Below are positions 3,762 through 41,494 of a stretch of 64,000 nt of DNA, piece by piece. Position 1 is the stretch's first letter, and each line of letters begins with the position of its first letter. The translations under genes and the position numbers were made by a program. The notes beneath the pieces were generated by a model that had not been told where the DNA came from, ran no database searches, and worked only from the letters and a program-made list of their open reading frames with translations. Source of the DNA: Granulicella aggregans. Its GTDB lineage: Bacteria > Acidobacteriota > Terriglobia > Terriglobales > Acidobacteriaceae. The stretch spans positions 682,001-746,000 of the forward strand of contig NZ_JACHIP010000002.1 in NCBI RefSeq assembly GCF_014203275.1. Direction: 5' to 3'.

Positions 3762-4265
3762 CTACTTCGCAGCGCCGCCGTAGACCGCTGGTTCACCGAG
3801 GCTGCCGGCCTTGGGAAGATGGCGGATGTAGAGGACCATCTGCCACATTTCTTTGTCAGAGAAGTCGCCACTCGAAGGCGGCATGCCAGAAGGGTAGATG
3901 CCATTCTTGATGACCCAGTGCAACTGCCCGTCGGTGTAAGACTGAACTTCGGCGCTGGCGAGCGATGGCACCTGCGGCGAGATGGTCGTCGCGAAGGGAA
4001 CGCCGGTGTTCTGGCCGTCGAGCCCGTGGCAGACCATGCAGTATGCAGTGAAGCTCTGCTTGCCTTCGTCGATGCTCCCTTCGGATGCCTTGATCGGGTT
4101 GATGTCCTTCTTCCCGCCGACCGTGACGTGGTGCTTGGTCCAGTTGGCGATCTTCGTCTCTGCCTTTGAGGGCGGTTTCGCGGCGCAGCCAGCGAGTAGA
4201 GTCGGCAGGGCGACGAGCATGATCAGGCTACCCAGTCTCTTCATCGATATAGTACGAGGCATCAT
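3762..4265 (-). CDS. Class I cytochrome c lipoprotein
   Basis: A 167-residue protein with a hydrophobic signal ending in the lipobox LLAGC (Cys27), so it is predicted to be lipid-anchored. A single haem-binding motif CMVCH lies at residues 76-80, and a likely axial Met sits in SGMPP near residue 128, a typical mono-haem cytochrome c arrangement. An ATG seven codons in (4244) would give the classic MKRLGS lipoprotein signal and is an equally good start. The fold probably carries electrons in the periplasm. The neighbours are an MFS transporter (convergent) and a DUF3592-like gene (divergent). The nearby DUF1501/DUF1553 gene pair also involves haem proteins, but a functional link is only inferred from proximity. 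Confidence 0.85.
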   Translation of the reverse strand: MMPRTISMKRLGSLIMLVALPTLLAGCAAKPPSKAETKIANWTKHHVTVGGKKDINPIKASEGSIDEGKQSFTAYCMVCHGLDGQNTGVPFATTISPQVPSLASAEVQSYTDGQLHWVIKNGIYPSGMPPSSGDFSDKEMWQMVLYIRHLPKAGSLGEPAVYGGAAK

Positions 4266-4352: not shown

Positions 4353-4700
4353 TTGACTGAACAATCAGGATGGATTGAAACCACCGCGACGGTCGTCTCC
4401 TGCAGGTATCAGTTTGCGAGAATGAATACGTTTCGGATGGGGGTGCAGAGTGGCGAAAAATACCGCATCGCATTTGACTATGTTGCGCACGGCCAGACCT
4501 ACTCCGACGAGTTTCAATCCGCTGTGGCCATTCCGCAAAATGAGCAGTTTTCGATTTGTTATAACCCTTTGGCACCGCAGCAGAACGATCGGTCTTCAGA
4601 AGGTGCCAGCGCGGGCCGAGCGCCTGTATTCGCGCTCGGCGTTGCTGGGTCGATCGTCCTATCGCTGCTGTGGCTGGCGGTGCTTCGCGGCTGTAGCTAG
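4353..4700 (+). CDS. DUF3592-like small membrane protein
   Basis: A 115-residue protein starting at a TTG preceded by GAGGGA at good spacing. The soluble part (ATVVSCRY...YRIAFDYVAHGQTYSDEF...VCYNP-like) matches the general pattern of DUF3592, a small beta-rich domain of unknown function. It is followed by one C-terminal hydrophobic helix (about 92-111) and a short charged tail. Its stop is immediately adjacent to the stop of the convergent DUF1501 gene (4700/4701). Function unknown. Confidence 0.65.
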   Translation: MTEQSGWIETTATVVSCRYQFARMNTFRMGVQSGEKYRIAFDYVAHGQTYSDEFQSAVAIPQNEQFSICYNPLAPQQNDRSSEGASAGRAPVFALGVAGSIVLSLLWLAVLRGCS

Positions 4701-6170
4701 TTAGGCAATGATGTCGTGGATCACGTTGCCGGAGACGTCCGTCAGCCGGAAGTCGCGGCCGCTGGAACGGAAGGTCAGCTTGGTGTGATCGATGCCCATC
4801 AGGTAAAGAATGGTCGCGTGGATGTCGTGGACGTGGACTGGCTTGTCGACCACCTTCCAGCCGAAGTCATCGGTCGCGCCGTAGGTCATGCCGCCCTTGA
4901 TGCCGCCGCCTGCAAGCCACATGCTGAAGCCGTGCGGGTTGTGGTCGCGACCGGCGTGGGTTCCGCCGCCGCCTAGCTCGACGACCGGGGTACGGCCGAA
5001 CTCCGAGCCGCAGACGATGATCGTTTCGTCCAACAAGCCGCGTGCTTTGAGGTCCTTGATCAGCGCGGCGAAGGGCTGGTCGGAATCCTTTGCGTTCTTG
5101 CGGTGCGACTGGATGTCCGCGTGTGCATCCCACGGGTCGCCCAGCGAGTAATAGACCTGCACCATGCGAACACCCTTCTCGATGAGGCGGGCTGCTGTGA
5201 GGCAGCCGCGGGCGGTTGAGCCCTCACCGTACATCTTGATGGTGGCCTCGCTCTCCTTGCGCACGTCGAAGACGTCGGGGGCCTCGGTCTGCATCCGGAA
5301 GGCCGTCTCCATGGAGCCGATGGTCGCCTCGAGCTGCGGATCGGCGTCTGCGGGGCCGTAGGTCTGCTGCTCGCTCAGCGCGTCGAGCTTCTTGACGAGG
5401 TCGAGTTCCTTGCGCTGTTGGCCGATGTCGAACTTGTCGTTGTGGATGTTGGGGATCAGCTTGTAAGGGTCAAAGTCCTTCTGCCTCGTGTCGGTGGAAA
5501 CATAGGTCGCCTGGTTGACAGCGGGGAGGAAGCCGGAGCTCCAGAGCGGCGGCCCGACGGTGCTGGGAACCTGCGGGCAGAGGACCACGAAGCCGGGAAG
5601 GTTCTTGTTCTCGACACCGAGACCATAGGTGAGCCACGATCCCATCGACGGACGGCCAATGATGTTCGCGCCGGTGTTCATCATGATCAGCGCGGGCTCG
5701 TGGTTGGGGATCTCGGTGAAGACCGAGCGGACGACGCAGATGTCGTCGGCGCACTCGCCCACGTTGGGGAAGAGCTCCGAGACTTCGAGGCCGCTTTTGC
5801 CGTAACGCTTGAACTCGAACGGCGACTTCATCAGCGTGCCGGTCTTGCGCTCGTGCCCAAGATCGCCACCGGGCATGGGCTGGCCGTGGTACTTCACAAG
5901 CGCCGGCTTGTTGTCGAAGCTGTCGATGTGCGAAAGACCGCCGTTCATGAAGAGGAAGATCACATGTTTGGCTTTGGGCTTAAAGCCGGGGTCTTTCAGC
6001 ATGTACTCGGGGACGGGGGTCGATTCAGTGACAGCCGCTGCGCCACCGAGGCTTTCGGCCTGCGCCAGCGACTCGCCGATCATTCCGGCAAAGCTCATCA
6101 TGGCGAATCCGCCGCCAATGCGGCGAAGGGCGTCTCTACGATCGATCGGTTTCGGTTTGACACACGACAT
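4701..6170 (-). CDS. DUF1501 protein with Tat signal (alkaline-phosphatase/sulfatase superfamily)
   Basis: A 489-residue DUF1501 protein. The N-terminus carries a twin-arginine motif (DRRDALRRIGGGF, residues 10-22) and a hydrophobic stretch ending in a SLAQA-like cleavage region, so export in folded form is expected. Typical DUF1501 features are FLFMNGGLSHIDSFDNKP, EFGRTPVVE, and GGGTHAGRDHNPHGFS near the C-terminus. The family belongs to the alkaline phosphatase/sulfatase superfamily and is usually paired with DUF1553 proteins; biochemical function is not established. A GAGGAGA ribosome site precedes the ATG. It lies 67 bases downstream of the DUF1549/DUF1553 gene and is probably the last gene of the operon beginning with the ABC transporter at 12.4 kb. 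Confidence 0.9.
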   Translation of the reverse strand: MSCVKPKPIDRRDALRRIGGGFAMMSFAGMIGESLAQAESLGGAAAVTESTPVPEYMLKDPGFKPKAKHVIFLFMNGGLSHIDSFDNKPALVKYHGQPMPGGDLGHERKTGTLMKSPFEFKRYGKSGLEVSELFPNVGECADDICVVRSVFTEIPNHEPALIMMNTGANIIGRPSMGSWLTYGLGVENKNLPGFVVLCPQVPSTVGPPLWSSGFLPAVNQATYVSTDTRQKDFDPYKLIPNIHNDKFDIGQQRKELDLVKKLDALSEQQTYGPADADPQLEATIGSMETAFRMQTEAPDVFDVRKESEATIKMYGEGSTARGCLTAARLIEKGVRMVQVYYSLGDPWDAHADIQSHRKNAKDSDQPFAALIKDLKARGLLDETIIVCGSEFGRTPVVELGGGGTHAGRDHNPHGFSMWLAGGGIKGGMTYGATDDFGWKVVDKPVHVHDIHATILYLMGIDHTKLTFRSSGRDFRLTDVSGNVIHDIIA

Positions 6171-6237
6171 GGGGAAATCTCCTCTGTTTCGAAGTGCCTG
6201 ATGAACCTGCCATCAGTCTAGCGATTTCTTCTGCTAC

Positions 6238-9500
<3,263 letters not shown>

Positions 9501-9504
<4 letters not shown>

Positions 9505-10448
9505 ACAGCCTCTTCTTCTCCGTCTACCGCAGATTCATCGAGTGCCTGATCGTCATGACGATTGCCACGTGAGAAACGTTCCACGTAATCGACGAGATCG
9601 AGGAACTCCTGTCCATTCTTCTTCAGGCTCATTCCGGCTTCGTTACCCGGGAGCTTCATGTCGAGCGCGACCTTCGAACCGCAATGATCTTCATGGCTCG
9701 AACGAGCGAGCACGATCAAACGCGTGCCAAGATAGAGTGCCTCGGCGGTGTTGTGCGTTACGAAGACGATGGTCGGCTTCGACTCGTTCCAGACCGTCTT
9801 AAGTAATCTCTGCAGACTGGCACGCGTCGCCGGATCAAGCGCACTGAAGGCCTCGTCCATCAGCAGGACGCGGTTCTTCATCATCAGCGCCTGCGCGATG
9901 GCGACGCGCTGCTGCATGCCACCTGAAAGCTGGTGCGGGTACTTGCCCGCGTCGGTTGGGCGCAGGCCCATGTGCTCGAGCTGGCGCATCGCCTCTTTGC
10001 GAACCTGTTTGCGGAAGCTGCGGAAGCCGGGCATAAGTCGCCCGAGGATGTGGTACTTCGAGGTCTCCGGGCCCATGGTCAGGTTGTCGAGGACTGTGCG
10101 ATCGGGGAAGAGCGAGTATTTCTGCGGGACGTAGCCGGAGCGCGCATCGACGCGCTCGACAGCCTTGCCTGAGACATAGACCTTTCCAGACGTTGGCCGT
10201 TCCTGGCCTAGGATCATTCGCAGCAGCGTGCTCTTGCCGCAGCCCGTCTCGCCCAACAAAACGACGAACTCGCCGTCTTCAATCTCGAGTGAGATGTTCT
10301 CAAGCACGGTGCGCTGCTTCTTCTTAGCCAGCGGATAACACATCGAAACGCCGTCGACATGGATCGACGTAGCGGCAGGTGATGGCATCGCGACCACAGT
10401 GCCGGTCTCGTTCGCAACTTTCACAGGAGCGCTCACGCCTGAAACCAT
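9501..10448 (-). CDS. ABC transporter ATP-binding protein (urea-carboxylase-linked NitT/TauT type)
   Basis: A 315-residue ATPase. The open frame extends further upstream, but homology starts after the ATG at 10448, which overlaps the permease stop by 16 bases. Walker A is GETGCGKST (66-74), the ABC signature is LSGGM in the middle, Walker B is VLLMDEAFSALD, and the switch His is in FVTHN. About 25 residues precede the domain and an acidic tail follows it. It would power the importer formed with the adjacent permease and binding protein. By sequence and neighbours it belongs to the nitrate/sulfonate/taurine group, in the subgroup often found with urea carboxylase. Its stop codon overlaps the start of the DUF1553 gene. 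Confidence 0.9.
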
Positions 10449-11302
10449 GGATGCATCCTCCTGTTCAGAAGTCGCAGCGAAAGGTCGATCGCGAAGAGCA
10501 GGAACGCCACCCACAGAACGTACGGCAGGATCACGTCCATGCCCATGTGGCGGCGCATGATGGCGATGCGATACGCGAGGCCGTCCGAGGCCGCGATCAT
10601 CTCGCCCGCGAAGAGGAAGAGCATCATCGGCTTCAGGTTCAGTCGCAGGCTGTTGATGACCTGCGGAAGCACTTGCCGGAAGACCACGCGATAAGCGACG
10701 TCGAAGTTGTTCGCATCCAGAGTGAAGGCCTTGACGATCTGCTCCTGCGGCACTGCCTTCACCATCTGGGTCACGTCGAGGATCATGGTCGGCGCGACGC
10801 CGATGACGATGAGCGCGATCTTCGACCACTCATCGATGCCGAAGACGATGAACAATATCGGCAGCAGCGAGAGCGCCACGATCTTGTCGAAGAAGAGGAC
10901 GAAGCGCAGGAAGCCAGCGCCGAACCATGGGAAGAGACCGATGTGGAGCGCCAGCACCACTGCGGGAATCAGCAGAGCGAGGCTGATCAGGAAACGGCGG
11001 CCGCTCGAGACCGTGTCCTTCACGATCATCGAATGCTTGAAACGCTCCCACTTCGAGGCATCGTCAGCGGGGATGTAGTCGTCTTCTTCCGCTGGCTCGA
11101 AGACGGAGGCATGAATGCCATTCGCAAGCTGCGTGGCGTTGGGGGTGACGCGATCTTCGGGGTTCTCCTTATGCCGGTTGATCGAGGTCTGCATGTAGAG
11201 ACCGATGCAGATCAGGAACAACAGACACGACAAGGCCTGGGCCACCAGCCGGTTGGGCCGGGCTTGTATATCGACGATGTCGAACGGAGAGAAGGCGGCC
11301 AT
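10433..11302 (-). CDS. ABC transporter permease (urea-carboxylase-linked)
   Basis: A 289-residue membrane protein with about six hydrophobic segments. It has a long hydrophilic stretch after the first helix (about 40-95), and the EAA loop typical of BPD-type permeases (EQIVKAFTLDAN...VVFRQVLPQ) near residues 185-215. It begins 3 bases after the binding-protein stop and overlaps the ATPase start, so all three are co-translated. The family is the NitT/TauT type permease; a single permease gene suggests a homodimeric channel. The substrate is inferred from the binding protein to be guanidine, urea or a related compound. Confidence 0.88.
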   Translation of the reverse strand: MAAFSPFDIVDIQARPNRLVAQALSCLLFLICIGLYMQTSINRHKENPEDRVTPNATQLANGIHASVFEPAEEDDYIPADDASKWERFKHSMIVKDTVSSGRRFLISLALLIPAVVLALHIGLFPWFGAGFLRFVLFFDKIVALSLLPILFIVFGIDEWSKIALIVIGVAPTMILDVTQMVKAVPQEQIVKAFTLDANNFDVAYRVVFRQVLPQVINSLRLNLKPMMLFLFAGEMIAASDGLAYRIAIMRRHMGMDVILPYVLWVAFLLFAIDLSLRLLNRRMHPWFQA

Positions 11303-11305
11303 GGT

Positions 11306-12400
11306 TTAGAGCTTCCCTTGTTGAGCTGCCTGCATATAGGTCGCGTTGAAGCGCAGACGAACGCGGTCCTTCTTGCCCTGGATCGAGCCATCCGGATAAA
11401 TGATCGCCACGTCGTCTGCAGATTTGATTCCCTGCCCCAGCAGGCCGTGCGCGAAGCAGAACTGACGAACGAGGTCCATCTTCTGCTTGATCGTCGGACT
11501 GGTGGTGAAGTCTGCCGCAGACTTCGGGGTCGCAAAGAGCGAGGTCGTCTTCAACTGCTCTTTGTACGACTCGACCGAGTCGCCCGACGCTCCGGCTGAG
11601 TACTTGATCGCATTCGCCTGTCCCGCCGCGAGCTGGGCGACGGTCTCGTACCAGGCACCGCTTACGGCCTTAGCGAACTTCTGGCCTGAGCCGTCGGGGC
11701 GATTCAGGACTTCGGTGCGGACGACGAGAAGATCAAGGATCTCGCCGGGGATCTTCGAGGAATCGAAGATGGAGTGAACGCTCTTGTCAGCAAGTATCTG
11801 CGAGACCAGAGGCTTCCAGGTCACAACCACCGGGTTCGACTTGTTATTCATGAACGCCGCTACGATGTCCGAGTCTGAGGTATTGATCAACTTCAGCTTC
11901 GAGAGGTTCGCCTGCTGGCCGTTCAGCACCATGCCACGTTCGAGCAGGTACTCGGAGACGGTCTTCTGCACCAGCATGATCTTCTGTCCGGGCAGCTTGT
12001 CGAAGGTGAGGCCGTTGCGCACGATGATGGCGTCGTTGCCGTTCGAGTAGTCGCCGACGATGATGGCGGTCGAATCGACTCCGGCAGCGGCGGGAAGGTC
12101 GAAGGCCTCCATGTTGGTCATCGTGCAGGCGTCGATGTTCTTGGCCACAAAGGCGTCGAGCGAGGCGGCGTAGTCGAACCGCTGCACCTTGATCGCGATG
12201 CCGTACTTGTCCGCCCACTTCTTCAGAATTCCCGACTTCTGCATGTAGAAGTACGGGTTCCAGCCTGCGTAAACTGACCAGCCCACGGTGAACGTGGGCA
12301 CGTCAGCCTTCGCCTGCGAGGAGACGCAGGTGGCAAGGAGTAGAAAGGCTGCTGCGGCATACAGCAAACTGCGCGACTTCGACGCTTGCGTGTCTCTCAT
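11306..12400 (-). CDS. ABC substrate-binding protein, urea carboxylase-associated type
   Basis: Preferred start is the ATG at 12400, which opens a signal peptide (MRDTQASKSRSLLYAAAAF... cleaved after QAKA). A GTG at 12472 would add 24 unlikely residues. The mature protein has the SBP_bac/NMT1-like fold. It carries the pattern I remember for binding proteins encoded with urea carboxylase: VGWSVYAGW near the N-terminus, KKWADKYGI, then CTMTNM and IIVGDYSNGND. These resemblances are from memory and not searched. It should capture a small nitrogen compound (guanidine or urea is the best guess) in the periplasm. It heads the operon running to DUF1501. The carboxylase operon that would use the substrate lies at 26.3-33.2 kb. 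Confidence 0.85.
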   Translation of the reverse strand: MRDTQASKSRSLLYAAAAFLLLATCVSSQAKADVPTFTVGWSVYAGWNPYFYMQKSGILKKWADKYGIAIKVQRFDYAASLDAFVAKNIDACTMTNMEAFDLPAAAGVDSTAIIVGDYSNGNDAIIVRNGLTFDKLPGQKIMLVQKTVSEYLLERGMVLNGQQANLSKLKLINTSDSDIVAAFMNNKSNPVVVTWKPLVSQILADKSVHSIFDSSKIPGEILDLLVVRTEVLNRPDGSGQKFAKAVSGAWYETVAQLAAGQANAIKYSAGASGDSVESYKEQLKTTSLFATPKSAADFTTSPTIKQKMDLVRQFCFAHGLLGQGIKSADDVAIIYPDGSIQGKKDRVRLRFNATYMQAAQQGKL

Positions 12401-25002: not shown

Positions 25003-25219
25003 TATGGTCACTCTTCAGTATAACGCGCACTGCAAAGGGACGGTTACAGCCTCGCCGTCCCACTCAGCCAGCGGGCGGACTGCACGAACCTATCAGCGAT
25101 ATAGAAAATTCCCATACTCCGGCCCGCATTCGCCGCCATTTGTTCTAGTTGAAGATGCTCGTCCCCACAAGCGACAATTCTATGTTCAAACAGCTTCGTT
25201 GCAGGAGCAACTTGTATCT

Positions 25220-26206
25220 ATGGCTTCGATCAGTATGAAATGGCAGGGTGTAACCCTGTTGGCCTCTGGAATCTTCGCTACAACCTCGCTCTTAGCACAG
25301 CAGCCGCCACCGCCTCCGGGGATCAAGACGCCCGGTGTCGTGCGTCCGCTCAGCGACATCAAGCCGAGCACCGTCTACCAGGTCGCCGGTTCGCCGGACT
25401 GGAAGGTGATGGCGAAGGATTCGGTATGGGTGACAAGCGCCCGGGCCAACCACGTCGTGCAGCTTCTGCCCGGCGAAGGCAAGACCGGCATCGTCGTCGA
25501 CGTCCCCAAGCCCTGCTCAAGCCTCGCCTACGGCTGGAACTCGATCTGGATTCCAAGCTGTGGCGCGAAGAAGTTGCTCCGCGTCGATGAGACCACCGGC
25601 AAGACCGTCGCCGAGATTGACGCTGACGCGGCTAACTCCGAGGGCGGCATCACCACCGGACTGGGGGCAGTCTACCTGGTGGTCAAACCAAGCACGCTGC
25701 TCAAGGTCGATCCGGAGACGAACACCGTAGTCGCGAAGCTCGATCTGCCCTCGGAGTCCGAAAACCCATTCTTCGGCAACGGCTTCGTCTGGGTCACATC
25801 GTTTGGCCACAACGCGTTGCTGAAGGTCGATCCGCAGTCGATGCAGCTCGTCGCCACCATCCCCATCGGCCCCAAACCGCGCTTCCTCACCGTGGGCGCT
25901 GGCTCCGTGTGGACGGTGAACCAGGGTGACGGCTCGGTCTCTCGAGTGGACATGGCAAGCGGTACGCTCGTCGCTACGATCGAGTGCGGCCTAAGTGGCC
26001 CTGGCGGCGAGATCACCTTTGGCGCGGGCTCCGCTTGGGCAACGCTCTTCAACATCCCGCTGACTCAGATCGACGCCAGCACTAACAAGGCAGTAAAGCA
26101 GTGGGCGGGCAAGGGCGGCGACGGCTTGCAGTTCGGCTTTGGTTCACTCTGGCTCTCGAACCTGGCTCAGCAAACGGTCTGGAGAATTTCGCCCGATCAG
26201 AAGTAG
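25220..26206 (+). CDS. Secreted beta-propeller protein (Vgb/YncE-like)
   Basis: A 328-residue exported protein with a signal peptide (about 1-29, cleaved after LLAQ) and a seven-bladed-type beta-propeller. Repeated blade motifs are visible (SVWVTSARANHVVQL, AVYLVVKPSTLLKVDPETN, FVWVTSFGHNALLKVDP, SVWTVNQGDGSVSRVD, SAWATLFNIPLTQID). The family includes streptogramin lyase Vgb and YVTN/NHL propellers; I see no assignable catalytic residues. The start at 25220 has CAGGAG about 12 bases upstream; an ATG at 25235 is possible. It sits upstream of the carboxylase operon on the same strand, separated by a small repeat region, so membership in that operon is uncertain. Confidence 0.75.
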   Translation: MASISMKWQGVTLLASGIFATTSLLAQQPPPPPGIKTPGVVRPLSDIKPSTVYQVAGSPDWKVMAKDSVWVTSARANHVVQLLPGEGKTGIVVDVPKPCSSLAYGWNSIWIPSCGAKKLLRVDETTGKTVAEIDADAANSEGGITTGLGAVYLVVKPSTLLKVDPETNTVVAKLDLPSESENPFFGNGFVWVTSFGHNALLKVDPQSMQLVATIPIGPKPRFLTVGAGSVWTVNQGDGSVSRVDMASGTLVATIECGLSGPGGEITFGAGSAWATLFNIPLTQIDASTNKAVKQWAGKGGDGLQFGFGSLWLSNLAQQTVWRISPDQK

Positions 26207-26331: not shown

Positions 26332-27057
26332 TTGTCGTTCGAAGTGTCCTCCAAAACTCTCTGGCAGGAGATGCTGCTAGGCTCCTCGACCTGGTCGCAT
26401 GTCCTGAAGCGCGGCACGGCGCTGCGTATCACCGCAGGCGGCGACCACGCCAATGTGGGCGCGCTACTGTTGAACGCGGACAACTTCTCTGAGCGGTTGA
26501 ACCTGCCCGACACGCTGAAGGCGCAGCATATCGCACGACTCACCACGGGCGCGGTTCTCTACTCCGACATGGCGCGCATCCTCTGCTCCATCACCGACGA
26601 CACGCTGGGCTGGCACGATCCTTTGGGCGGCTGCTCGGATGCAGCGACGGTCGCGGCGAAGTATGGCGCGCTCGATTACCAGGCGGCGCGCAACGACTGG
26701 CACCAGAATGCTCTCGACGGCTTCCTGATCGAGCTTGCCAAGTACGGTTTGGGCCCGCGCGACCTGATGATGAACATCAACTTCTTTAGCAAGGTCGAAG
26801 TAAAGGACGATGGCAGCATGGCCTTCATCGAAGGCCATGCGAAGGCCGGCACATCGGTCGAGCTTCGCGCGGAGATGAACACGCTCGTCATCCTGAACAC
26901 CTGCCAGCATCCGATGGATCCCGATCCGGCCTATCGCCAGGTTCCCGTTGAACTCGCGATCAAACGCGTGCCCGCCCCCGCAGCTGACGACATCTGCCGC
27001 AACTTCCGCGCGGAGAACGCCCGAGGATTCACCCTGACGGAGCGCTACTTCCTCTAG
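26332..27057 (+). CDS. Urea/guanidine carboxylase-associated protein, DUF1989 (UAAP1; carboxyguanidine deiminase subunit)
   Basis: The TTG at 26332, with AGAAAGG upstream at good spacing, gives a 241-residue protein of usual length; the frame is open further upstream without homology. Family blocks are WSHVLKRGTALRITAGG, NVGALLLNADNFSERLNLPDTLKAQH, and DMARILCSITDDTLGWHDPLGG. These are characteristic of the UAAP1/DUF1989 group. Published work shows that the two UAAP proteins form a carboxyguanidine deiminase converting carboxyguanidine to allophanate plus ammonia. The Cys/His-rich motif (ILCSITDDTLGWHD) probably binds a metal. It is the first gene of the pathway operon, and the next UAAP gene begins 42 bases later. 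Confidence 0.85.
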   Translation: MSFEVSSKTLWQEMLLGSSTWSHVLKRGTALRITAGGDHANVGALLLNADNFSERLNLPDTLKAQHIARLTTGAVLYSDMARILCSITDDTLGWHDPLGGCSDAATVAAKYGALDYQAARNDWHQNALDGFLIELAKYGLGPRDLMMNINFFSKVEVKDDGSMAFIEGHAKAGTSVELRAEMNTLVILNTCQHPMDPDPAYRQVPVELAIKRVPAPAADDICRNFRAENARGFTLTERYFL

Positions 27058-27099
27058 CACTTGCGCCTTTCCGAGTCACTTTTTTTTGGAGTTCCAGAT

Positions 27100-27774
27100 A
27101 TGTCAGAAGCAGTTCTAGTGACGAGTCCGCGAACGCCCGAGGATGCCATCTTCTCGGAAGACATCAAAGCGGGCGACTCCTTCGTACATGAGATTCGCGC
27201 CGGGCAGTACGTCCGCATCGTCGACCTCGAAGGCAACCAGGCCGTCGACACGCTCTTCTACAACGCGCATGACTACGCCGACCGCTACAGCACGCAGGAC
27301 ACCATCCGCGCCCAGGGGAACGTCTATCTCACCACCGGAACAAAGCTCCTCTCGACAGAGCGCAATGTGCTGCTGACCATCGTCGCGGATACCTGTGGCC
27401 GCCACGATACGCTCGGTGGAGCCTGCTCCTGTGAGAGCAACATGGTCCGCTACGCAATCGAGAAGCGCAGTATGCACGCCTGCCGCCAGAGCTTTCTCAA
27501 GGGTGCAATCGCATGGTCGGAGAAGACGGGCCGCGAACTCGGCAAGCGCGATCTGGCGGCAAATATCAACTTCTTCATGAATGTCCCAGTCACGCCCGAA
27601 GGCAAGCTGACCTTCGAGGACGGAGTCTCGGACGCAGGCAAGTATGTCGAACTGCGCGCCGAGATGGACACGCTCATCGTCATCTCCAACTGTCCGCAGT
27701 TGAACAACCCATGCAACGCTTACAACCCCACTCCGGTGCGCATCCTCATCTGGGATGCCGGGGCGAATAGCTAG
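27100..27774 (+). CDS. Urea/guanidine carboxylase-associated protein, DUF1989 (UAAP2; carboxyguanidine deiminase subunit)
   Basis: A 224-residue DUF1989 protein starting at the ATG 27100 with GGAG upstream; a TTG at 27061 is less likely. It has [34 protein letters not shown], the motif [19 protein letters not shown] (Cys/His cluster, probable metal site), and the C-terminal VRILIWDAG. Sequence and partner identify it as the second UAAP subunit, homologous to UAAP1. The pair acts between the carboxylase and allophanate hydrolase if the carboxylase uses guanidine. It ends 18 bases before the carboxylase gene. Confidence 0.85.
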
Positions 27775-27792: not shown

Positions 27793-30700
27793 ATGTTCAA
27801 GAAAGTCCTTATCGCAAATCGCGGCGCAATTGCCTGCCGCATCGAGCGCACACTGCGCAAGATGGGCATCGCGTCTGTCGCTGTCTACTCCGAAGCCGAC
27901 GCCCACTCGCTGCATGTATTTGAAGCCGACGAAGCCGTGGCGATCGGGGCGCCGCCCGCCGCGCAGAGCTATCTCGTCCTCGACAAGATCTTCGCTGCTG
28001 CCGCCGAGACGGGCGCGGAAGCGATCCACCCCGGCTATGGCTTCCTCAGCGAGAACGTCCACTTCGCGAGAGAATGTGCCGCTCGCGGTATCAAATTCAT
28101 CGGCCCCGAGCCAGCGCACGTCGAAGCCTTCGCGCTGAAGCATACGGCTCGCGAGACGGCTAAGAGCTGCGGCGTTCCGCTGCTTCCCGGCACTGGTCTG
28201 TTGACCGATCTTGACGACGCGCTCGCACAAGCGGAGACGTTGAAGTATCCCGTGATGCTCAAGAGCTCGGGCGGCGGCGGAGGCATCGGCATGAAGGTCT
28301 GCTACTCCGCTGAACAGCTTGCCGAGACTTATGACTCCGTGTTGCGACTGAGCAAGGCAAACTTTGGCGACAGTGGAGTCTTTCTCGAGAAGTACGTCGC
28401 GCGCGCACGACACATCGAGGTGCAGATCTTCGGCGACGGTAAGGGCGGCGTCATCGCACTTGGCGAACGTGACTGCTCCACGCAGCGACGGCACCAGAAG
28501 GTGCTCGAAGAGACACCCGCGCCGGGCCTTACAGATGCCACGCGGCAGGAGCTTTACAAGTCCGCGATCGTGCTCGGGAAGGCGGTGAACTACGCATCGG
28601 CGGGCACTGTTGAGTTCATCTATGACGACGACACCAGCGAGTTTTACTTCCTAGAAGTGAACACACGGCTGCAGGTAGAACACGGCGTGACCGAGCAGGT
28701 CACCGGCGTCGACCTCGTCGAATGGATGGTGTTACAGGCATCGGGCGACCTCGCTCCGCTCGACTCGTTCGAGATCAAGCCTACGGGCGCTTCCATCGAA
28801 GCCCGCGTCTACGCGGAAGACCCGGCACAGAACTTCCAACCTTCACCCGGCAAGCTAACGCTGGTGCGTTTCCCTCCTCCGGAGCTTGCTCGCGTAGAAA
28901 CGTGGATCGAGTCAGGATCGACGATCACACCGTTCTACGATCCCATGATCGCGAAGATCATCGTCACCGGCAAAGACCGCACCGAGGCGCTGGTGAAGCT
29001 CGACGCCGCACTGGCCGCGAGTTTTATCGATGGCACCGAGACGAATCTGCGCTATCTGCGCAAGGTTGCGGCGACTCCGGAGTTTGTATCTGGAAGAGTT
29101 ACAACTGCATTTCTGGGCACGTTCGCCTTCGAGCGCAACGCGATTGAAATTCTGGAAGGCGGAACGCAGACCACCATTCAGGACTACCCCGGCCGTACGG
29201 GCTACTGGAACATCGGCGTGCCTCCGTCGGGCCCGATGGATCATCTCTCGTTTCGCATCGCCAACCGCCTGGTCGGCAACGATGCGGGAGCGGCGGCGAT
29301 CGAGTTTGCCACCATGGGCGGCCGCATCCGCTTTACCTCCGAAACGACAATCGCGCTGACCGGCGCGGACATGGGAGCGAAGCTCAACGGCAAGCCGGTT
29401 GCGCGCTGGGTCGCCATCGACGTGAAGGCGGGCAGCACGTTGTCGCTCGGTGCAGCTTCGAAGGAAGGTATCCGTGCCTACCTCGCTCTGCGTGGCGGCA
29501 TCGATACGCAGCCGTATTTGAATAGCCGCAGCACGTTTATGCTTGGCGGCTTCGGCGGGCACGCTGGCCGAGCATTGCGTGCGGGCGACGTGTTGCATCT
29601 TGGAGCTCCGGACGCAAAGCTCGGCGCGCCTGCAATGCTGCCCGCAGAGTCCGCGCCAGCACTGACGAGAACGTGGGAGATCGGAGTTCTCTTTGGGCCG
29701 CACACTGCGCCTGACTTCTTCACTGCCCCGGACATCGAGATGCTCTTTGCGACGCACTGGAAGGTCCACTACCAGAGCGATCGCACTGGGGTGCGACTCG
29801 TCGGCCCGAAGCCGACATGGGCGCGGCCCGATGGTGGCGATGCCGGCCTGCACCCCTCGAACATTCACGACAACGCCTACGCGATCGGCACCATCGACTT
29901 CACCGGCGATATGCCCATTTTGCTTGGGCCCGATGGCCCGAGCCTTGGCGGCTTCGTCTGCCCCGCGACCATCGTTCAGGCGGAGCTATGGAAACTCGGC
30001 CAACTCAAGGCTGGCGACACCGTCCACTTCAATCGCATCACACTTGCTGAAGCCCAAGCGCTTGAGCTCGCGCAGGACAAGTTCCTCGAAGACTTCACAT
30101 CCGCTCCGCTCGCTCTGCCAACAAGCTCGACGCCAGAACCGGCCATCATCGCGGCCTACACCGATCGGCCGCAGAAGATGGTCTTCCGCGCGGATGGCGA
30201 CAAGTATCTCCTCGTCGAATATGGCGAGCTTGAGCTCGATCTCTACCTGCGCTTCCGCGTTCACATCCTCGAGCAGAAGTTGCGAGAGACTGCACTCAAC
30301 GCCATCATTGACATCACGCCGGGCATCCGCTCGCTTCACATTCATTACGACAGCCGCATGCTCGCGCGCGCCAAGCTGATCGAACTGCTGAACGATCTCG
30401 ACCGCACGATGCCCGAGCTTACCGATATCACCGTGCCCTCGCGCATCGTCTACCTGCCGCTTTCGTGGGACGACCCACAGGCGAAGATCGCGCAGGAAAA
30501 GTACATGCAGGCCGTGCGCCCCGACGCTCCGTGGTGCCCGTCGAACATCGAGTTCATCCGCCGCATCAACGGCCTCGATTCCATCGAGGATGTCTACCGC
30601 ATCGTGCATGAGGCAAGCTATCTTGTACTCGGTCTGGGCGATGTCTATCTCGGCGCTCCGGTTGCGACGCCTGTCGATCCGCGGCATCGTCTCGTCACCA

Positions 30701-31392
30701 CGAAGTACAACCCTGCCCGCACGTGGACGCCGGAGAACGCAGTCGGAATCGGCGGAGCGTACATGTGCGTCTACGGCATGGAAGGCCCAGGCGGCTATCA
30801 ACTCGTCGGCCGCACGGTTCAGGTGTGGAACACATGGAAGTCCACGCCTACATTCGCTGAAGGTACGCCATGGTCGCTGCGCTTTTTCGACCAGATCCGG
30901 TTCTATCCCATCAGTGCAGAAGATCTACTGAAAGCGCGCGAAGACTTCCCGCATGGCCGCTTTGAACTACGCGTCGAAGAGACGACCTTCAACCTTAAGG
31001 AGTATCAAGCCTTTCTCGACTCCATCGCCGTCGAAGCTGCAGCCTTCAAGAAGCACCAGAAGGCATCGTTCAACGCCGAACGCGAGCGTTGGGTCGCGGC
31101 AGGATTGATGACCGTCGCCGAGCCCGAGGCAGCGCTTGAAGCGACGACCGCCGCTGTCGTCGCTGAAGGATGCGAGGGAGTCTCGTCGCCGGTTACGGCG
31201 AGCATCTTCCAGATCGTCGTCAAGCCGGGAGATGCCGTCGGTGATGGCCAGAAGCTAATCGTGCTCGACGCCATGAAGACGGAGATCGTCGTCGCCTCAC
31301 ACGTAGACGGCATCGTCGAAGAGATTTACTGCGCACAGGGAGCGCTGGTGCAGGGCGGCCAACTGCTGCTCTCCGTTCGGCCAACAGAATAG
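27793..31392 (+). CDS. Urea/guanidine carboxylase, biotin-dependent
   Basis: A 1199-residue protein with the full urea carboxylase layout. The biotin carboxylase part (about 1-450) has MFKKVLIANRGAIACR, the ATP-grasp loop SSGGGGGIGMK, and HVDG-type later elements. The middle carries KipA- and KipI-like carboxyltransferase domains (EGGTQTTIQDYPGRTGYWNIGVP near 460; FGGHAGRALR near 590; WDDPQAKIAQEKYMQAVRPDAPW near 900). The biotinyl domain is at the C-terminus with AMKTE, biotin lysine Lys1162. It carboxylates urea to allophanate or guanidine to carboxyguanidine, using ATP and bicarbonate. Presence of the two UAAP genes favours guanidine, but a specificity residue could not be verified. The allophanate hydrolase gene starts 13 bases later. 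Confidence 0.93.
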   Translation: MFKKVLIANRGAIACRIERTLRKMGIASVAVYSEADAHSLHVFEADEAVAIGAPPAAQSYLVLDKIFAAAAETGAEAIHPGYGFLSENVHFARECAARGIKFIGPEPAHVEAFALKHTARETAKSCGVPLLPGTGLLTDLDDALAQAETLKYPVMLKSSGGGGGIGMKVCYSAEQLAETYDSVLRLSKANFGDSGVFLEKYVARARHIEVQIFGDGKGGVIALGERDCSTQRRHQKVLEETPAPGLTDATRQELYKSAIVLGKAVNYASAGTVEFIYDDDTSEFYFLEVNTRLQVEHGVTEQVTGVDLVEWMVLQASGDLAPLDSFEIKPTGASIEARVYAEDPAQNFQPSPGKLTLVRFPPPELARVETWIESGSTITPFYDPMIAKIIVTGKDRTEALVKLDAALAASFIDGTETNLRYLRKVAATPEFVSGRVTTAFLGTFAFERNAIEILEGGTQTTIQDYPGRTGYWNIGVPPSGPMDHLSFRIANRLVGNDAGAAAIEFATMGGRIRFTSETTIALTGADMGAKLNGKPVARWVAIDVKAGSTLSLGAASKEGIRAYLALRGGIDTQPYLNSRSTFMLGGFGGHAGRALRAGDVLHLGAPDAKLGAPAMLPAESAPALTRTWEIGVLFGPHTAPDFFTAPDIEMLFATHWKVHYQSDRTGVRLVGPKPTWARPDGGDAGLHPSNIHDNAYAIGTIDFTGDMPILLGPDGPSLGGFVCPATIVQAELWKLGQLKAGDTVHFNRITLAEAQALELAQDKFLEDFTSAPLALPTSSTPEPAIIAAYTDRPQKMVFRADGDKYLLVEYGELELDLYLRFRVHILEQKLRETALNAIIDITPGIRSLHIHYDSRMLARAKLIELLNDLDRTMPELTDITVPSRIVYLPLSWDDPQAKIAQEKYMQAVRPDAPWCPSNIEFIRRINGLDSIEDVYRIVHEASYLVLGLGDVYLGAPVATPVDPRHRLVTTKYNPARTWTPENAVGIGGAYMCVYGMEGPGGYQLVGRTVQVWNTWKSTPTFAEGTPWSLRFFDQIRFYPISAEDLLKAREDFPHGRFELRVEETTFNLKEYQAFLDSIAVEAAAFKKHQKASFNAERERWVAAGLMTVAEPEAALEATTAAVVAEGCEGVSSPVTASIFQIVVKPGDAVGDGQKLIVLDAMKTEIVVASHVDGIVEEIYCAQGALVQGGQLLLSVRPTE

Positions 31393-31405: not shown

Positions 31406-33205
31406 ATGGACATCGCAGCGCTTCACGCAGCCTACGCAGCCGGTGATCAGAACCCCAGATGCGTCGTCGAGGGTATCTACGACCGCATCGAGAAGGAAGG
31501 TCTGCGGCCGGTCTGGATCTCCATCGTGCCGCGCGAGCAAGCTATTGCGCGCGCGCATGCGCTTGAATCGCAGGACCGCAGCAAGCTGCCTCTTTACGGC
31601 ATTCCTTTTGCCGTGAAGGACAACATCGATGTAACGGAGATGCCGACCACTGCGGCCTGCCCGGCTTACGCATACACGCCGACGGAGTCCGCGACCGTGG
31701 TAACGAAGCTTGAAGCGGCTGGAGCGATCCTGATCGGCAAGACGAACATGGACCAGTTCGCGACTGGCCTCGTGGGTACGCGGACGCCCTACGGCATCTG
31801 CTCCAGCGTCTTCAATGCGAAGTACATCTCTGGCGGGTCTAGCGCTGGCTCGGCAGTCGCGGTCGCAGGCGGCCTAGTCACGTTCTCACTTGGTACGGAC
31901 ACAGCAGGCTCAGGTCGCGTGCCTGCGATGTTCAACAACCTCATTGGCTTGAAGCCCACGCGCGGAGCCATCAGCACACATGGCGTTGTTCCCGCCTGCC
32001 GCACGCTCGACTGTGTCTCGATCTTCGCCGAGACCTCTTATGATGCAAGCCTTGTGCTGGCCAATGCTGCTGGCTTCGACGCGGCTGATCTTTACTCGCG
32101 CCAGCCCGCAGTCGGAGCTGGAGCTTCGCCATGGGCGGGTGCTCCCACGTTCCGCTTCGGCGTTCCGTCAGAGGCACTGCTGAATTTCTTCGGCGACGAT
32201 CATAATCCCGCACTATTCAAGAGTGCGGCCGAACAGCTCACCACGCTTGGCGGAGTTGCCGTTGAGTTCGATCTGCAGCCATTCCTCGATGCCGCACAGC
32301 TTCTCTACAAAGGCCCGTGGGTGGCAGAGCGTTATGCCGCGATCGCGAAGTTCATCGGCGATCACAAGGCCGAGATGGACCCGACAGTGGCGACCATCAT
32401 CTCTGGTGCCGCCAACTACTCCGCAGTGGATTCCTTCGATGCGGCCTACAAGCTAGAAGCACTGCGCCGTACGACATCAACCGCATGGCACAACTTCGAT
32501 GTGATGCTGCTACCGACCGCGCCGCGTGCCTTCACTATCGAAGAGATCGCGGAGAATCCGATCGAGCGCAACAGCATCCTGGGAACCTACACAAACTTCG
32601 TGAACCTGCTCGACCTTGCCGCAGTCGCTCTGCCAGCAGGTATGCGCCCCGATGGCTTGCCCTTCGGCGTCACGCTCATCGGCCAGGCATTCACGGAAGC
32701 CGCACTGCTCTCGCTGGCAGACAAGCTGCATCGCAAACTTTCAACAGCACTGGGCGGATCAAGGCGCGAGCTTGCCACGACGCCATCACTCAAAGCAGCA
32801 AACCCGCCGCACGGCTGCCTATTGATGGCCGTCGTGGGGGCCCACCTCTCCGGGCAGCCGCTCAACTGGCAGCTTACGCAACGCGGCGGCCAACTCGTCA
32901 AGACATCGAAGACAAGTCCGCACTACCGCTTCTACGCGTTGGCGAACACGACCCCGCCGAAGCCCGGCCTGGTCCGTGAGCCTGCATTCAACGGCCCTGG
33001 TATCGAAGTGGAAGTATGGGCGCTCCCCGCGAATACGGTTGGCACGTTCGTGGAAGGCGTGCCACAGCCGCTCTCCATCGGCACTTTGGAGCTTGAAGAC
33101 GGTAGCCTGGTGAAGGGATTCCTGGTCGAGCCAGTCGGCACCGAAGGCGGCCTTGAGATCACGCACCTCGGCGGCTGGCGCAGCTATCTTGCATCGCTCA
33201 AGTAG
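31406..33205 (+). CDS. atzF: Allophanate hydrolase
   Basis: A 599-residue amidase-signature enzyme that hydrolyses allophanate to two ammonia and two CO2, ending the carboxylase pathway. The Ser-cisSer-Lys triad is visible: Lys in FAVKDNID, Ser in GGSSAGSAVA, and Ser in TDTAGSGRVP. The C-terminal domain (about 470-599) has the AtzF-type PHGCLLMAVVGAHLSGQPLN and YRFYAL segments. Length fits stand-alone allophanate hydrolases. It overlaps nothing but sits 13 bases after the carboxylase. Its stop lies 6 bases from the stop of the convergent peroxidase-like gene. Confidence 0.93.
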   Translation: MDIAALHAAYAAGDQNPRCVVEGIYDRIEKEGLRPVWISIVPREQAIARAHALESQDRSKLPLYGIPFAVKDNIDVTEMPTTAACPAYAYTPTESATVVTKLEAAGAILIGKTNMDQFATGLVGTRTPYGICSSVFNAKYISGGSSAGSAVAVAGGLVTFSLGTDTAGSGRVPAMFNNLIGLKPTRGAISTHGVVPACRTLDCVSIFAETSYDASLVLANAAGFDAADLYSRQPAVGAGASPWAGAPTFRFGVPSEALLNFFGDDHNPALFKSAAEQLTTLGGVAVEFDLQPFLDAAQLLYKGPWVAERYAAIAKFIGDHKAEMDPTVATIISGAANYSAVDSFDAAYKLEALRRTTSTAWHNFDVMLLPTAPRAFTIEEIAENPIERNSILGTYTNFVNLLDLAAVALPAGMRPDGLPFGVTLIGQAFTEAALLSLADKLHRKLSTALGGSRRELATTPSLKAANPPHGCLLMAVVGAHLSGQPLNWQLTQRGGQLVKTSKTSPHYRFYALANTTPPKPGLVREPAFNGPGIEVEVWALPANTVGTFVEGVPQPLSIGTLELEDGSLVKGFLVEPVGTEGGLEITHLGGWRSYLASLK

Positions 33206-33211
33206 CCTTGA

Positions 33212-33895
33212 CTATTCGTCATCATCATCGCCACCGGGGCCGGGCGGTCCATCTTTGCCACCCTTCTTCGGCTTGTACCGGCCATCGAGTATCTGGTCGA
33301 TGGTCGAGATCATCTCGGGCGAGTCCGGCGTCACGTCCGGACCTAGCCGGGCAATGACCTTGCCTTCTTTGTTCACGATGAACTTGGTGTAGTTCCAGTG
33401 CACTGGACCACCGGCGGGAGCGTCCTTGCTCTTCGTCAGGTAGAGATAGAACGGGATCACATCGTCACCCGCGAGCTTCGAGACAGCCATCACGGGAAAC
33501 GTCACCTTCGCATCGGTGTAGGCCTTTTGAATCTCAGCGTCTTTCCCGGGCTCGGCCGCACCGAAGTCGTTCGAGGGCACACCGATCACAACGACGCCCT
33601 TGTCCCTGTAGGTCTCGTAGTCCTTCTCGAGCGCCGCAAGCTGCGCGTTGTAGCTCGATTTCCGTGCAAGGTTCACGACCAGAATGTACTTCCCTTTGAA
33701 GGTCGTCAGCGGAACATCCTTGCCATCCGCACCGGGCAGCACATAGTCGTAGGCGGTCTTCTCTGGCTTGGACTTCTTCGCAGCGTCCTTCGCGTCTGCG
33801 CTGGCTGCGGGCTTCTGCTTCGCTTTAGCCTGGAACGCAGACGCAGATGAAGTAAAGAGAACTCCCGTCAGCACCACCGCGCCGACGCCGCGCAT
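33212..33895 (-). CDS. Glutathione peroxidase-like secreted protein with Ser in place of catalytic Cys
   Basis: The ATG at 33895 opens a signal peptide (MRGVGAVVLTGVLFTSSASA); a GTG at 33994 would add 33 residues. The domain is glutathione-peroxidase-like: YILVVNLARKSSYNAQ aligns with the usual VNVASKCGLT, YRDKGVVVIGVPSNDFGAAEPG with the GFPCNQF block, and WNYTKFIV plus GKVIARLGP with the C-terminal signature. The catalytic Cys or Sec position is Ser80, and the second cysteine is also absent, so peroxidase activity is not expected. A charged tail (GPPGPGGDDDDE) ends the protein. It is probably a non-catalytic thioredoxin-fold protein in the periplasm. The LysR gene is divergent from it. Confidence 0.8.
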   Translation of the reverse strand: MRGVGAVVLTGVLFTSSASAFQAKAKQKPAASADAKDAAKKSKPEKTAYDYVLPGADGKDVPLTTFKGKYILVVNLARKSSYNAQLAALEKDYETYRDKGVVVIGVPSNDFGAAEPGKDAEIQKAYTDAKVTFPVMAVSKLAGDDVIPFYLYLTKSKDAPAGGPVHWNYTKFIVNKEGKVIARLGPDVTPDSPEMISTIDQILDGRYKPKKGGKDGPPGPGGDDDDE

Positions 33896-34009
33896 CCACC
33901 AGCCGGCAGGAGGCACTGGCTGGCGATCGGAAGACGAGGCAGGATCTGCCAAACGATAACGCAAGGGGGCAAAAGCAGCGGAGGGATATCGCACGGGTAT
34001 GCCTGAGGG

Positions 34010-40492: not shown

Positions 40493-41494
40493 TTGAAGCT
40501 GCCACTCTTCGCCGCCACCCTGTGCCTCGTCTCCTCCCTCGCCGTCGCGCAACTCCCACAGCCGGACGGCGGCAACATCGAACGCGGCACATTGCCCGAT
40601 CACTGGTACTCGCAGTTGCCGAAGTGCATGGAGATTCCTGAATGGCAGGTGCATGAGTACAACAAGGACTTCTACATCCTTCGCCAATCGCCCTGCACCG
40701 ACTACGAGAAGCCGTTCATCTTTCTGATCTTCGGCAAAGACAAAGCTCTCTTAATGGACACTGGCTCACGCAACGGCAACCTCGCACCCGCGTTGCAGCA
40801 CACGGTGAAAAACTGGCTGGCACGCAATGGGCGCACCAGCATCCCGGTGATCGTCGCTCACACCCATGAACACGAAGACCATACGTGGGGCGACAAAGAG
40901 CTTCAGGCGTTGAGCGATCCTGCCATGCCCATTACCTTCACGCCCTCAGAGGTAGAAGCGACGAAGAAACTTTTCGGGATCGCAAACTGGCCGACCGACA
41001 TTGGCCACCTCGATCTTGGTGACCGCATCGTCGACCTCATCCCCATCCCGGGCCACAGCAAGGTCAGCGTGGCGCTCTACGACCGGCGCACAGCCGTGCT
41101 GCTGGGCGGCGACACGGTCTATCCCGGACGCATCTATGTCAACGACTTCGCCGCATTCACCGCCAGCCTTGCACGGCTGGTCGCCTTCACCGAGGGCAAG
41201 CCCATCGCAAACATCCTGGGCAACCACATTGAGCAGACGGCCACGCCGTTCGTCGACTACCCTGTCGGCACCATGTATCAGCCGAACGAGCATGAACTCG
41301 CGCTCTCCCGCGGAACGCTGCTGGAGTTGAACGACGCAGTGATCTCCATGCACGGCACGCCGCATCGCTACTGTATGCGCGATATCTCCGTCTGGCCGGT
41401 CGGGCCGTCTTTCATGACGGCTGAAGACGAAGCGAAGTTCAAGAAGCATCGCCAGGAGGAGAAGGATCGCATATGGGATCACACGAAGCCGTAG
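40493..41494 (+). CDS. Secreted metallo-beta-lactamase-fold hydrolase (copy 2)
   Basis: A 333-residue paralogue of the preceding gene, clearly homologous along its length (HEYNKDFYILRQSP, FGKDKALL, DTGS, HTHEHEDHTWGD, GDTVYPGRI, HIEQ.ATPF). The TTG start has AGGAG upstream (CAGGAGACCATC) and gives a signal peptide ending at AVAQ. All metal ligands of copy 1 are kept, including GHSKVS in the place of GHTHED, where the second His of the first copy is lost. Both appear to be co-transcribed, with a 103-base gap containing a weak hairpin and T-run. The substrate is unknown. Confidence 0.87.
   Translation: MKLPLFAATLCLVSSLAVAQLPQPDGGNIERGTLPDHWYSQLPKCMEIPEWQVHEYNKDFYILRQSPCTDYEKPFIFLIFGKDKALLMDTGSRNGNLAPALQHTVKNWLARNGRTSIPVIVAHTHEHEDHTWGDKELQALSDPAMPITFTPSEVEATKKLFGIANWPTDIGHLDLGDRIVDLIPIPGHSKVSVALYDRRTAVLLGGDTVYPGRIYVNDFAAFTASLARLVAFTEGKPIANILGNHIEQTATPFVDYPVGTMYQPNEHELALSRGTLLELNDAVISMHGTPHRYCMRDISVWPVGPSFMTAEDEAKFKKHRQEEKDRIWDHTKP

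What the first reader, a model, noticed from the sequence alone, without database searches (positions are those of the whole stretch)
4701..12400. ABC importer translationally coupled to a multi-haem PSCyt1/DUF1553 protein and a DUF1501 protein
Binding protein, permease and ATPase are packed with a 3-base gap and a 16-base overlap. The ATPase stop then overlaps the start of the 1088-residue tri-haem PSCyt1-DUF1549-DUF1553 gene (ATGA), followed by a Tat-exported DUF1501 gene. DUF1553/DUF1501 pairs are known as a recurring, uncharacterised unit, but their tie to a guanidine/urea-type importer suggests that an extracytoplasmic redox or hydrolytic step precedes uptake. This is the best candidate for an undescribed system in the window. 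Overlap is seen; the joint function is inference.
Basis: partly seen in the sequence, partly recalled or inferred. Interest (0 to 1): 0.75.

Follow-up and report, generated by a model that had tools for sequence, protein, structure and literature searches.

The report
Haem module tied to guanidine uptake
In soil Acidobacteria, the genes for two uncharacterised exported proteins, one of them with three haem-binding motifs, sit with the genes of a guanidine-type importer and of guanidine-degrading enzymes, and the two proteins likely free guanidine from larger compounds outside the cell so that its nitrogen can be used.

Summary
The overlap recurs in 14 of 15 Acidobacteriaceae loci. About 14 kb away in the same window lie deiminase, guanidine (not urea) carboxylase and allophanate hydrolase genes, so the operon is half of a split guanidine island. 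In 399 genomes of the class, one DUF1553 subfamily follows guanidine degradation: of 57 genomes with a close match, 43 have the carboxylase, 3 a guanidinase, 11 neither. Between islands the degrading enzyme (carboxylase or guanidinase) and the importer (ABC or sodium symporter) change while DUF1553 and DUF1501 remain. A same-genus genome with urea carboxylase has no close DUF1553 match. Against: four guanidine-carboxylase genomes and 67 distant importer loci lack the module. DUF1501 has an alkaline-phosphatase-superfamily fold; DUF1553 matched no solved fold beyond its cytochrome domains. Best reading (inferred): an extracytoplasmic haem-linked module releases guanidine from a larger guanidino compound. 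Substrate and reaction are untested. My literature searches listed no paper with guanidine carboxylase and these domains together.

The parts
11306..12400 (-). Periplasmic binding protein of a guanidine-type ABC importer (TIGR03427)
   Evidence: 443 bits vs cut-off 333.9; alignment with 7 orthologues
10433..11302 (-). ABC permease
   Evidence: PF00528
9501..10448 (-). ABC ATPase; its stop overlaps the next start (ATGA)
   Evidence: PF00005; -4 overlap in 14 of 15 loci
6238..9504 (-). Exported tri-haem PSCyt1-DUF1549-DUF1553 protein, island subfamily
   Evidence: Pfam; clade of 41 rows, SH-aLRT 98; subfamily residues 394-404
4701..6170 (-). Tat-type DUF1501 protein, alkaline-phosphatase-superfamily fold
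3762..4265 (-). Mono-haem cytochrome c lipoprotein (CMVCH); electron acceptor role inferred
   Evidence: PF13442/PF00034; found in 6 of 6 genus relatives with room
25091..26206 (+). Exported beta-propeller-like (DUF6923-type) protein; start uncertain
   Evidence: similar to proteins beside the importer or DUF1553 in relatives; own Pfam score just below cut-off
26353..27057 (+). DUF1989 protein UAAP1 (carboxyguanidine deiminase subunit by homology); start uncertain
   Evidence: PF09347; 64% identical to a TIGR03425 protein
27061..27774 (+). DUF1989 protein UAAP2 (carboxyguanidine deiminase subunit by homology); start uncertain
   Evidence: 69% identical to a TIGR03424 protein
27793..31392 (+). 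Guanidine carboxylase
   Evidence: TIGR02712, 1787 bits; Asp702 and Asp950 = K. lactis 1330 and 1584
31406..33205 (+). Allophanate hydrolase
   Evidence: 55% identical to a TIGR02713 protein
33212..33994 (-). Glutathione-peroxidase/thioredoxin-fold protein
   Evidence: PF00255
34212..35111 (+). LysR-type regulator
   Evidence: PF00126/PF03466
35529..39281 (+). TonB-dependent-type outer-membrane barrel
   Evidence: PF25183, PF13620
39376..40389 (+). Exported metallo-beta-lactamase-fold protein 1
   Evidence: PF00753; relatives in other islands
40493..41494 (+). Exported metallo-beta-lactamase-fold protein 2
   Evidence: PF00753; relatives in other islands

Best explanation
The window carries a split guanidine-nitrogen island in which a guanidine-type ABC importer operon runs, through a 4-base gene overlap, into a tri-haem DUF1553 protein and a DUF1501 protein, and this exported pair likely releases free guanidine from a larger guanidino compound before the importer takes it up. 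Shown by sequence: gene order, overlaps, family assignments, the carboxylase signature residues, and co-occurrence and co-location across the class. Inferred chain: (1) the TonB-type receptor would bring in the compound; (2) the DUF1549/DUF1553 protein would oxidise the carbon next to the guanidino nitrogen and pass electrons through its c-haems to the cytochrome c lipoprotein and the respiratory chain; (3) DUF1501 and/or the metallo-beta-lactamase-fold proteins would finish the cleavage hydrolytically; (4) the binding protein would catch the released guanidine for import; (5) cytosolic guanidine carboxylase, carboxyguanidine deiminase and allophanate hydrolase turn it into ammonia and CO2. 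Steps 1-4 are untested predictions. Step 5 is the known pathway (PMC11410670, PMC12186494, passages read), assigned here by homology.
For: Five-gene order in 15 of 15 Acidobacteriaceae loci, the -4 overlap in 14; the order without the overlap in one other-family genome, G419. In the 399-genome class sample: importer in 32, carboxylase in 51, DUF1553 close match (>=900 bits) in 57, carboxylase and DUF1553 both in 43. Outside the window's family, the best DUF1553 match lies within 20 kb of the carboxylase in 16 of 33 genomes; where a second-best match is listed, best 13 of 26, second-best 0 of 26. Guanidinase replaces carboxylase in G359 and G159 with DUF1553/DUF1501 kept. A sodium:solute symporter, 64-95% identical, sits in 9 fetched loci from 9 genomes without the ABC importer match; in three (G382, G249, G092) DUF1553 and DUF1501 lie in the same stretch. 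Urea-carboxylase genome G050 (Asn at the signature site) has no deiminase hit in the fetched 20 kb and no close DUF1553 match. Tree: one clade of 41 rows holds the island-type DUF1553. Precedent for guanidine-releasing enzymes inside a guanidine operon: MgdH/MgdL (PMC12508155, abstract and passages).
Against: No substrate or reaction is shown. 11 of 57 genomes with a close DUF1553 match have no carboxylase, guanidinase or importer match, among them G411 (1 contig, 99% complete). Four guanidine-carboxylase genomes (G075, G130, G185, G416) lack a close match, and 0 of 67 more distant importer loci have DUF1553 nearby, so the module is not needed to use guanidine. In 6 of the 9 symporter loci DUF1553 is not in the same fetched stretch. 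Paralogues outside the clade also lie near the island: about 10 kb from the importer in the window's genome, and about 17 kb away in G337; a partial hit also lies near it in G003. In one search only two candidates per genome were scored, the 900-bit line is post hoc, and Fisher values ignore shared ancestry. The cytochrome lipoprotein gene was found in 12 of 15 loci of the family and 0 of 17 elsewhere. TonB-type matches in other families are mostly only 26-36% identical. The DUF1501 model has mean pLDDT 65.9 and its metal ligands look altered.
Confidence: 0.42

Rival explanations
1. The exported genes form a TonB-linked surface capture and delivery complex that concentrates guanidine or a guanidino ligand without chemical change; the haems serve structure or sensing.
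For: TonB-type barrel hits recur in 3 of 8, 6 of 7 and 11 of 17 loci and propeller hits in 7 of 8, 6 of 7 and 10 of 17 (genus, rest of family, other families; several flanks are short); DUF1553, DUF1501 and TonB-type genes also sit together where no guanidine gene was seen in the fetched stretch.
Against: C184/C187/H188 and C494/C497/H498/H500 are invariant in all 67 aligned proteins and DUF1501 has a hydrolase-superfamily fold, which suggests chemistry.
Confidence: 0.22
2. The module detoxifies or respires something made during guanidine use, or balances redox under nitrogen limitation, and is co-regulated rather than part of the catabolic chain.
For: A glutathione-peroxidase-fold gene (3 of 8 and 7 of 7 loci) and a cytochrome c gene (12 of 15) lie in the islands of the window's family; the older suggestion for these domains is a redox role (PMC2754498, one passage).
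Against: The subfamily tracks guanidine enzymes; the urea-carboxylase genome G050 has no close match; second-best DUF1553 matches are not near the carboxylase (0 of 26).
Confidence: 0.2
3. The association is inherited linkage in Acidobacteria with no functional tie.
For: Fisher tests are not corrected for phylogeny; some genomes hold one half without the other; paralogues outside the clade lie near the island in the window's genome and in G337.
Against: Several different arrangements, swaps of enzyme and importer, patchy presence in the genus (8 of 60 genomes above the importer cut-off), and the best-versus-second-match control.
Confidence: 0.08

Closest known systems
Guanidine carboxylase pathway operon with ABC importer (PMC11410670, PMC12186494, passages read)
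   Same: TIGR03427-type importer, guanidine carboxylase with both signature Asp, DUF1989 deiminase pair, allophanate hydrolase
   Different: No guanidine riboswitch at Rfam gathering thresholds in the window or 15 relatives' loci; extra exported haem/DUF1501/propeller/MBL/TonB-type genes
MgdH/MgdL methylguanidine demethylase in Vreelandella (PMC12508155, abstract and passages)
   Same: Extra genes inside a guanidine operon that free guanidine from an N-substituted guanidine by an oxidative step followed by cleavage (there shown, here inferred)
   Different: There a 2-oxoglutarate dioxygenase plus a lyase; here an exported c-haem protein plus hydrolase-fold proteins of other families
PSCyt/PSD1 (DUF1549/DUF1553) and DUF1501 genes of Planctomycetes and Verrucomicrobia (PMC5615132, PMC2754498, passages read)
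   Same: Same planctomycete-specific domains; there too PSCyt genes have conserved neighbours
   Different: There function unknown, carbohydrate or redox role guessed; here one subfamily tied to guanidine genes
Alkaline phosphatase superfamily (NPP phosphodiesterases, sulfatases)
   Same: Fold of DUF1501
   Different: Where the superfamily usually has Asp-His after a core strand (recalled), DUF1501 reads SEFGR; active-site equivalence unproven

Membership tests
Guanidine carboxylase pathway | TIGR02712 carboxylase with Asp at K. lactis 1330 (distinguishes it from urea carboxylase) and Asp at 1584 | tested here: met
   Window D702/D950; 33 of 33 island sequences have Asp at the first site and 32 of 33 at the second, one cut off; some loci fetched twice. 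14 of 15 more; G050 has Asn
Guanidine carboxylase pathway | DUF1989 pair (CgdA/B) and allophanate hydrolase adjacent | tested here: met
   the CgdA/B tree of the paper was not repeated
Guanidine carboxylase pathway | Guanidine riboswitch control (frequent, not universal) | tested here: not met
   No guanidine riboswitch at gathering thresholds in the window or 15 loci; 3 loci not scanned
TIGR03427 guanidine/urea-type importer | Binding protein above the curated cut-off, with permease and ATPase | tested here: met
   443 vs 333.9 bits
TIGR03427 guanidine/urea-type importer | Binds guanidine | not testable with these tools
   No solved relative found by sequence
PSCyt1-DUF1549-DUF1553 proteins | Three Pfam domains and CXXCH motifs | tested here: met
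   three CXXCH in the sequence
Alkaline phosphatase superfamily (DUF1501) | Superfamily fold | tested here: met
Alkaline phosphatase superfamily (DUF1501) | Canonical metal ligands and nucleophile | tested here: inconclusive
   S175, D348, H350, E390, H410 invariant in 44 rows; roles inferred by eye
Nickel guanidinase (in relatives; L039 = G327, also G159, G345, G359) | Closest to solved guanidinases, with T, H and W of the published signature | tested here: met
   L039: 7esr 7e-149, 9fek 2e-147, next 2e-49; residues read by eye from the L039 alignment, numbering offset by about one; that these two entries are guanidinases is recalled; the other genomes by 87-89% identity
MgdH/MgdL methylguanidine demethylase | 2-oxoglutarate dioxygenase plus lyase | not tested
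   No search made for these families

The most novel reading that the evidence does not exclude
The island subfamily of PSCyt1-DUF1549-DUF1553 proteins with DUF1501 is a new kind of exported, haem-dependent enzyme complex that cleaves N-substituted guanidines outside the cytoplasm, making it the first member of this very large uncharacterised family with a known substrate class and a model for the many paralogues as substrate-specific extracytoplasmic degraders.
Probability: 0.33. Interest if true: 0.87.

Novelty: new variant of a known kind. Interest (0 to 1): 0.68.

Why it matters
DUF1549/DUF1553 and DUF1501 are highly copied uncharacterised genes (41 copies of each of DUF1549 and DUF1553 in one planctomycete genome, PMC2754498; over 100 first-look candidates in some genomes). 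A subfamily that follows guanidine genes in several arrangements gives a concrete substrate class to assay. It would also bear on the open question of where free guanidine in nature comes from (raised in PMC12186494).

Full report
OBSERVATION. The binding protein is TIGR03427 well above its cut-off; the others match PF00528, PF00005, PF07635/PF07583/PF07587 and PF07394. A sixth gene, a mono-haem cytochrome c with a lipobox (3762-4265), follows after 435 bases.

CONSERVATION OF THE OPERON. In 100 genomes (own counted, 60 of them of the window's genus) the binding protein is over its cut-off in 8, all of that genus. In the genus seven of seven loci with room, window included, have the six genes in the same order; an eighth contig (G046) ends inside DUF1553. 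Over 15 loci of the family, 8 in the genus (one, G234, from the class sample) and 7 in other genera, the ATPase/DUF1553 overlap is -4 in 14 and -1 in one, although the DUF1553 proteins share as little as about 53% identity with the window's. The start nearest the stop was chosen, which leans towards short spacings. The cytochrome gene is in 12 of these 15 and in 0 of 17 loci from other families.

WHAT THE IMPORTER SERVES. The window's own carboxylase (27793-31392) scores 1787 bits for TIGR02712. By the rule in PMC11410670 (passage read) guanidine carboxylase has Asp at K. lactis 1330 and 1584 and differs from urea carboxylase by the first; the window has both. Before it lie two DUF1989 genes, after it an allophanate hydrolase. 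The importer operon and the propeller/carboxylase operon point away from each other. In 7 of 8 genus relatives they are divergent neighbours; in G003 and in the window about 12-13 kb lie between, filled here with genes that look unrelated (a RuvB-like and an acetyltransferase-like gene by recall, and others). The island is therefore read as one guanidine unit that was split. No guanidine riboswitch was found in the window or 15 other loci at gathering thresholds; three loci were not scanned.

SPREAD. DUF1553 lies in the fetched flanks of 7 of the first 13, all acidobacterial by title or content, and 0 of the other 67, mostly Proteobacteria by title; some flanks are short. In an even sample of 399 genomes of the class: importer in 32, carboxylase at E <= 1e-250 in 51, guanidinase in 5, DUF1553 at 900 bits or more in 57 (only two candidates per genome scored). 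43 genomes have both carboxylase and DUF1553 (Fisher 3e-37, not phylogeny-corrected). Three more DUF1553 genomes (G159, G345, G359) have guanidinase; the other 11 of 57 have neither enzyme nor importer match. Two guanidinase genomes (G299, G327) have no 900-bit match. Of the 51 carboxylase genomes 8 lack a 900-bit match: G236, G324 and G365 have only partial or fragmentary lower-scoring matches (G236 and G324 at contig ends beside the island), G050 is a urea carboxylase, and G075, G130, G185 and G416 are true exceptions in these data.

LOCATION. Among the 32 importer genomes DUF1553 lies within the fetched flanks (up to about 19.5 kb) in 24: 13 of 13 of the window's family, 10 of 17 fetched others, and G419; G166 was not fetched. 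Because some genomes hold very many DUF1553 genes, I used the second-best match as control. Outside the family 33 genomes have carboxylase and a DUF1553 match: the best match is within 20 kb of the carboxylase in 16 of 33; of the 26 with a listed second match, best 13, second 0. A tree of 67 DUF1553 proteins puts the island-type proteins into one clade of 41 (SH-aLRT 98, quick method, midpoint root), apart from the 20 paralogues added from the class, three other copies of the window's genome, and G088, G219 and G223; G426, G411, G275 and G417, whose genomes gave no guanidine-enzyme match, are also inside. Against a clean picture: one of the outside copies of the window's genome lies only about 10 kb from the importer (L033), and one of G337's about 17 kb. 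The clade shares residues D394, R396, L398, P400 and G404 that are rare in the outsiders; that they bind a guanidinium group is a guess.

SWAPS. In G359 and G159 an arginase-family guanidinase replaces the carboxylase, with a urease gene near, and DUF1553, DUF1501, propeller and TonB-type hits remain. The L039 member of that guanidinase family is far closer to 7esr and 9fek than to any other solved protein. A sodium:solute symporter (PF00474 in G400) is found in 9 fetched loci, 64-100% identical: G400, G253, G424, G302, G249, G092, G382, G379 and G398, each without the ABC importer match. In G382, G249 and G092 it shares the stretch with deiminase or propeller hits and with DUF1553 and DUF1501; in the other six DUF1553 is on another contig or, in G400, 178 kb away. 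In G258, also without importer match, DUF1553 lies beside the carboxylase. G050, of the window's genus, has urea carboxylase (Asn at the signature site), what look like genes of a branched-chain-type ABC transporter (read from the translations, not scanned), no DUF1989 hit in the fetched stretch, and no close DUF1553 match. So the exported genes follow guanidine use rather than one enzyme or importer.

MECHANISM. Guanidine itself can be used without this module (67 loci without it nearby, four carboxylase genomes without it), so it more likely widens the diet than serves guanidine directly. A receptor, an exported haem protein, a hydrolase-fold protein and a binding protein in one island fit extracytoplasmic release of guanidine from a larger compound, as MgdH and MgdL do for methylguanidine by other chemistry (PMC12508155). 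This is inference; the substrate is unknown. Rivals are a non-catalytic capture complex and a redox-support role.

LITERATURE. Searches for DUF1553, DUF1501, DUF1549, PSCyt1/PSD1 (528 papers, 15 listed), guanidine with Granulicella or with Acidobacteria, carboxyguanidine deiminase (18 papers, 15 listed), and a combined search (13 of 13 listed) showed no paper holding both a guanidine-carboxylase term and one of these domain names; only open-licence PMC papers are held. I read passages of PMC11410670, PMC12186494, PMC5615132 and PMC2754498, and the abstract and passages of PMC12508155.

Noticed in passing
L033:8703-13004 (own genome, overlapping the window's left end): A second DUF1553/DUF1501 pair lies at and beyond the window's left end (44% identity in DUF1501), about 10 kb from the importer; the genome has four DUF1553 genes in all and the three others fall outside the island clade.
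   Followed up: partly
L039:7409-9085: A 558-residue protein with no Pfam or NCBIfam hit follows the guanidinase gene, with relatives at the same place in the 4 of 5 guanidinase genomes whose locus I saw; a candidate accessory factor.
   Followed up: no
L229:5383-6819 and 8 further loci: A sodium:solute symporter gene, found only in loci from genomes without the ABC importer match; a candidate guanidine symporter.
   Followed up: partly
L030:14531-15058: The cytochrome c gene of G014 loses its usual reading frame in its second half: a sequencing error or a decaying gene.
   Followed up: no
window 4353-4700 (+): A 115-residue ORF opposite to and between DUF1501 and the cytochrome gene, with a counterpart in G003; it may separate the cytochrome gene from the transcript.
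   Followed up: no
window 18003-18875 (-): XRE-cupin regulator in the stretch that splits the island; link to nitrogen control unknown.
   Followed up: no
L191:1513-14177 (G359): One genome carries two DUF1553/DUF1501 pairs, one from each branch of the clade, within about 13 kb.
   Followed up: no
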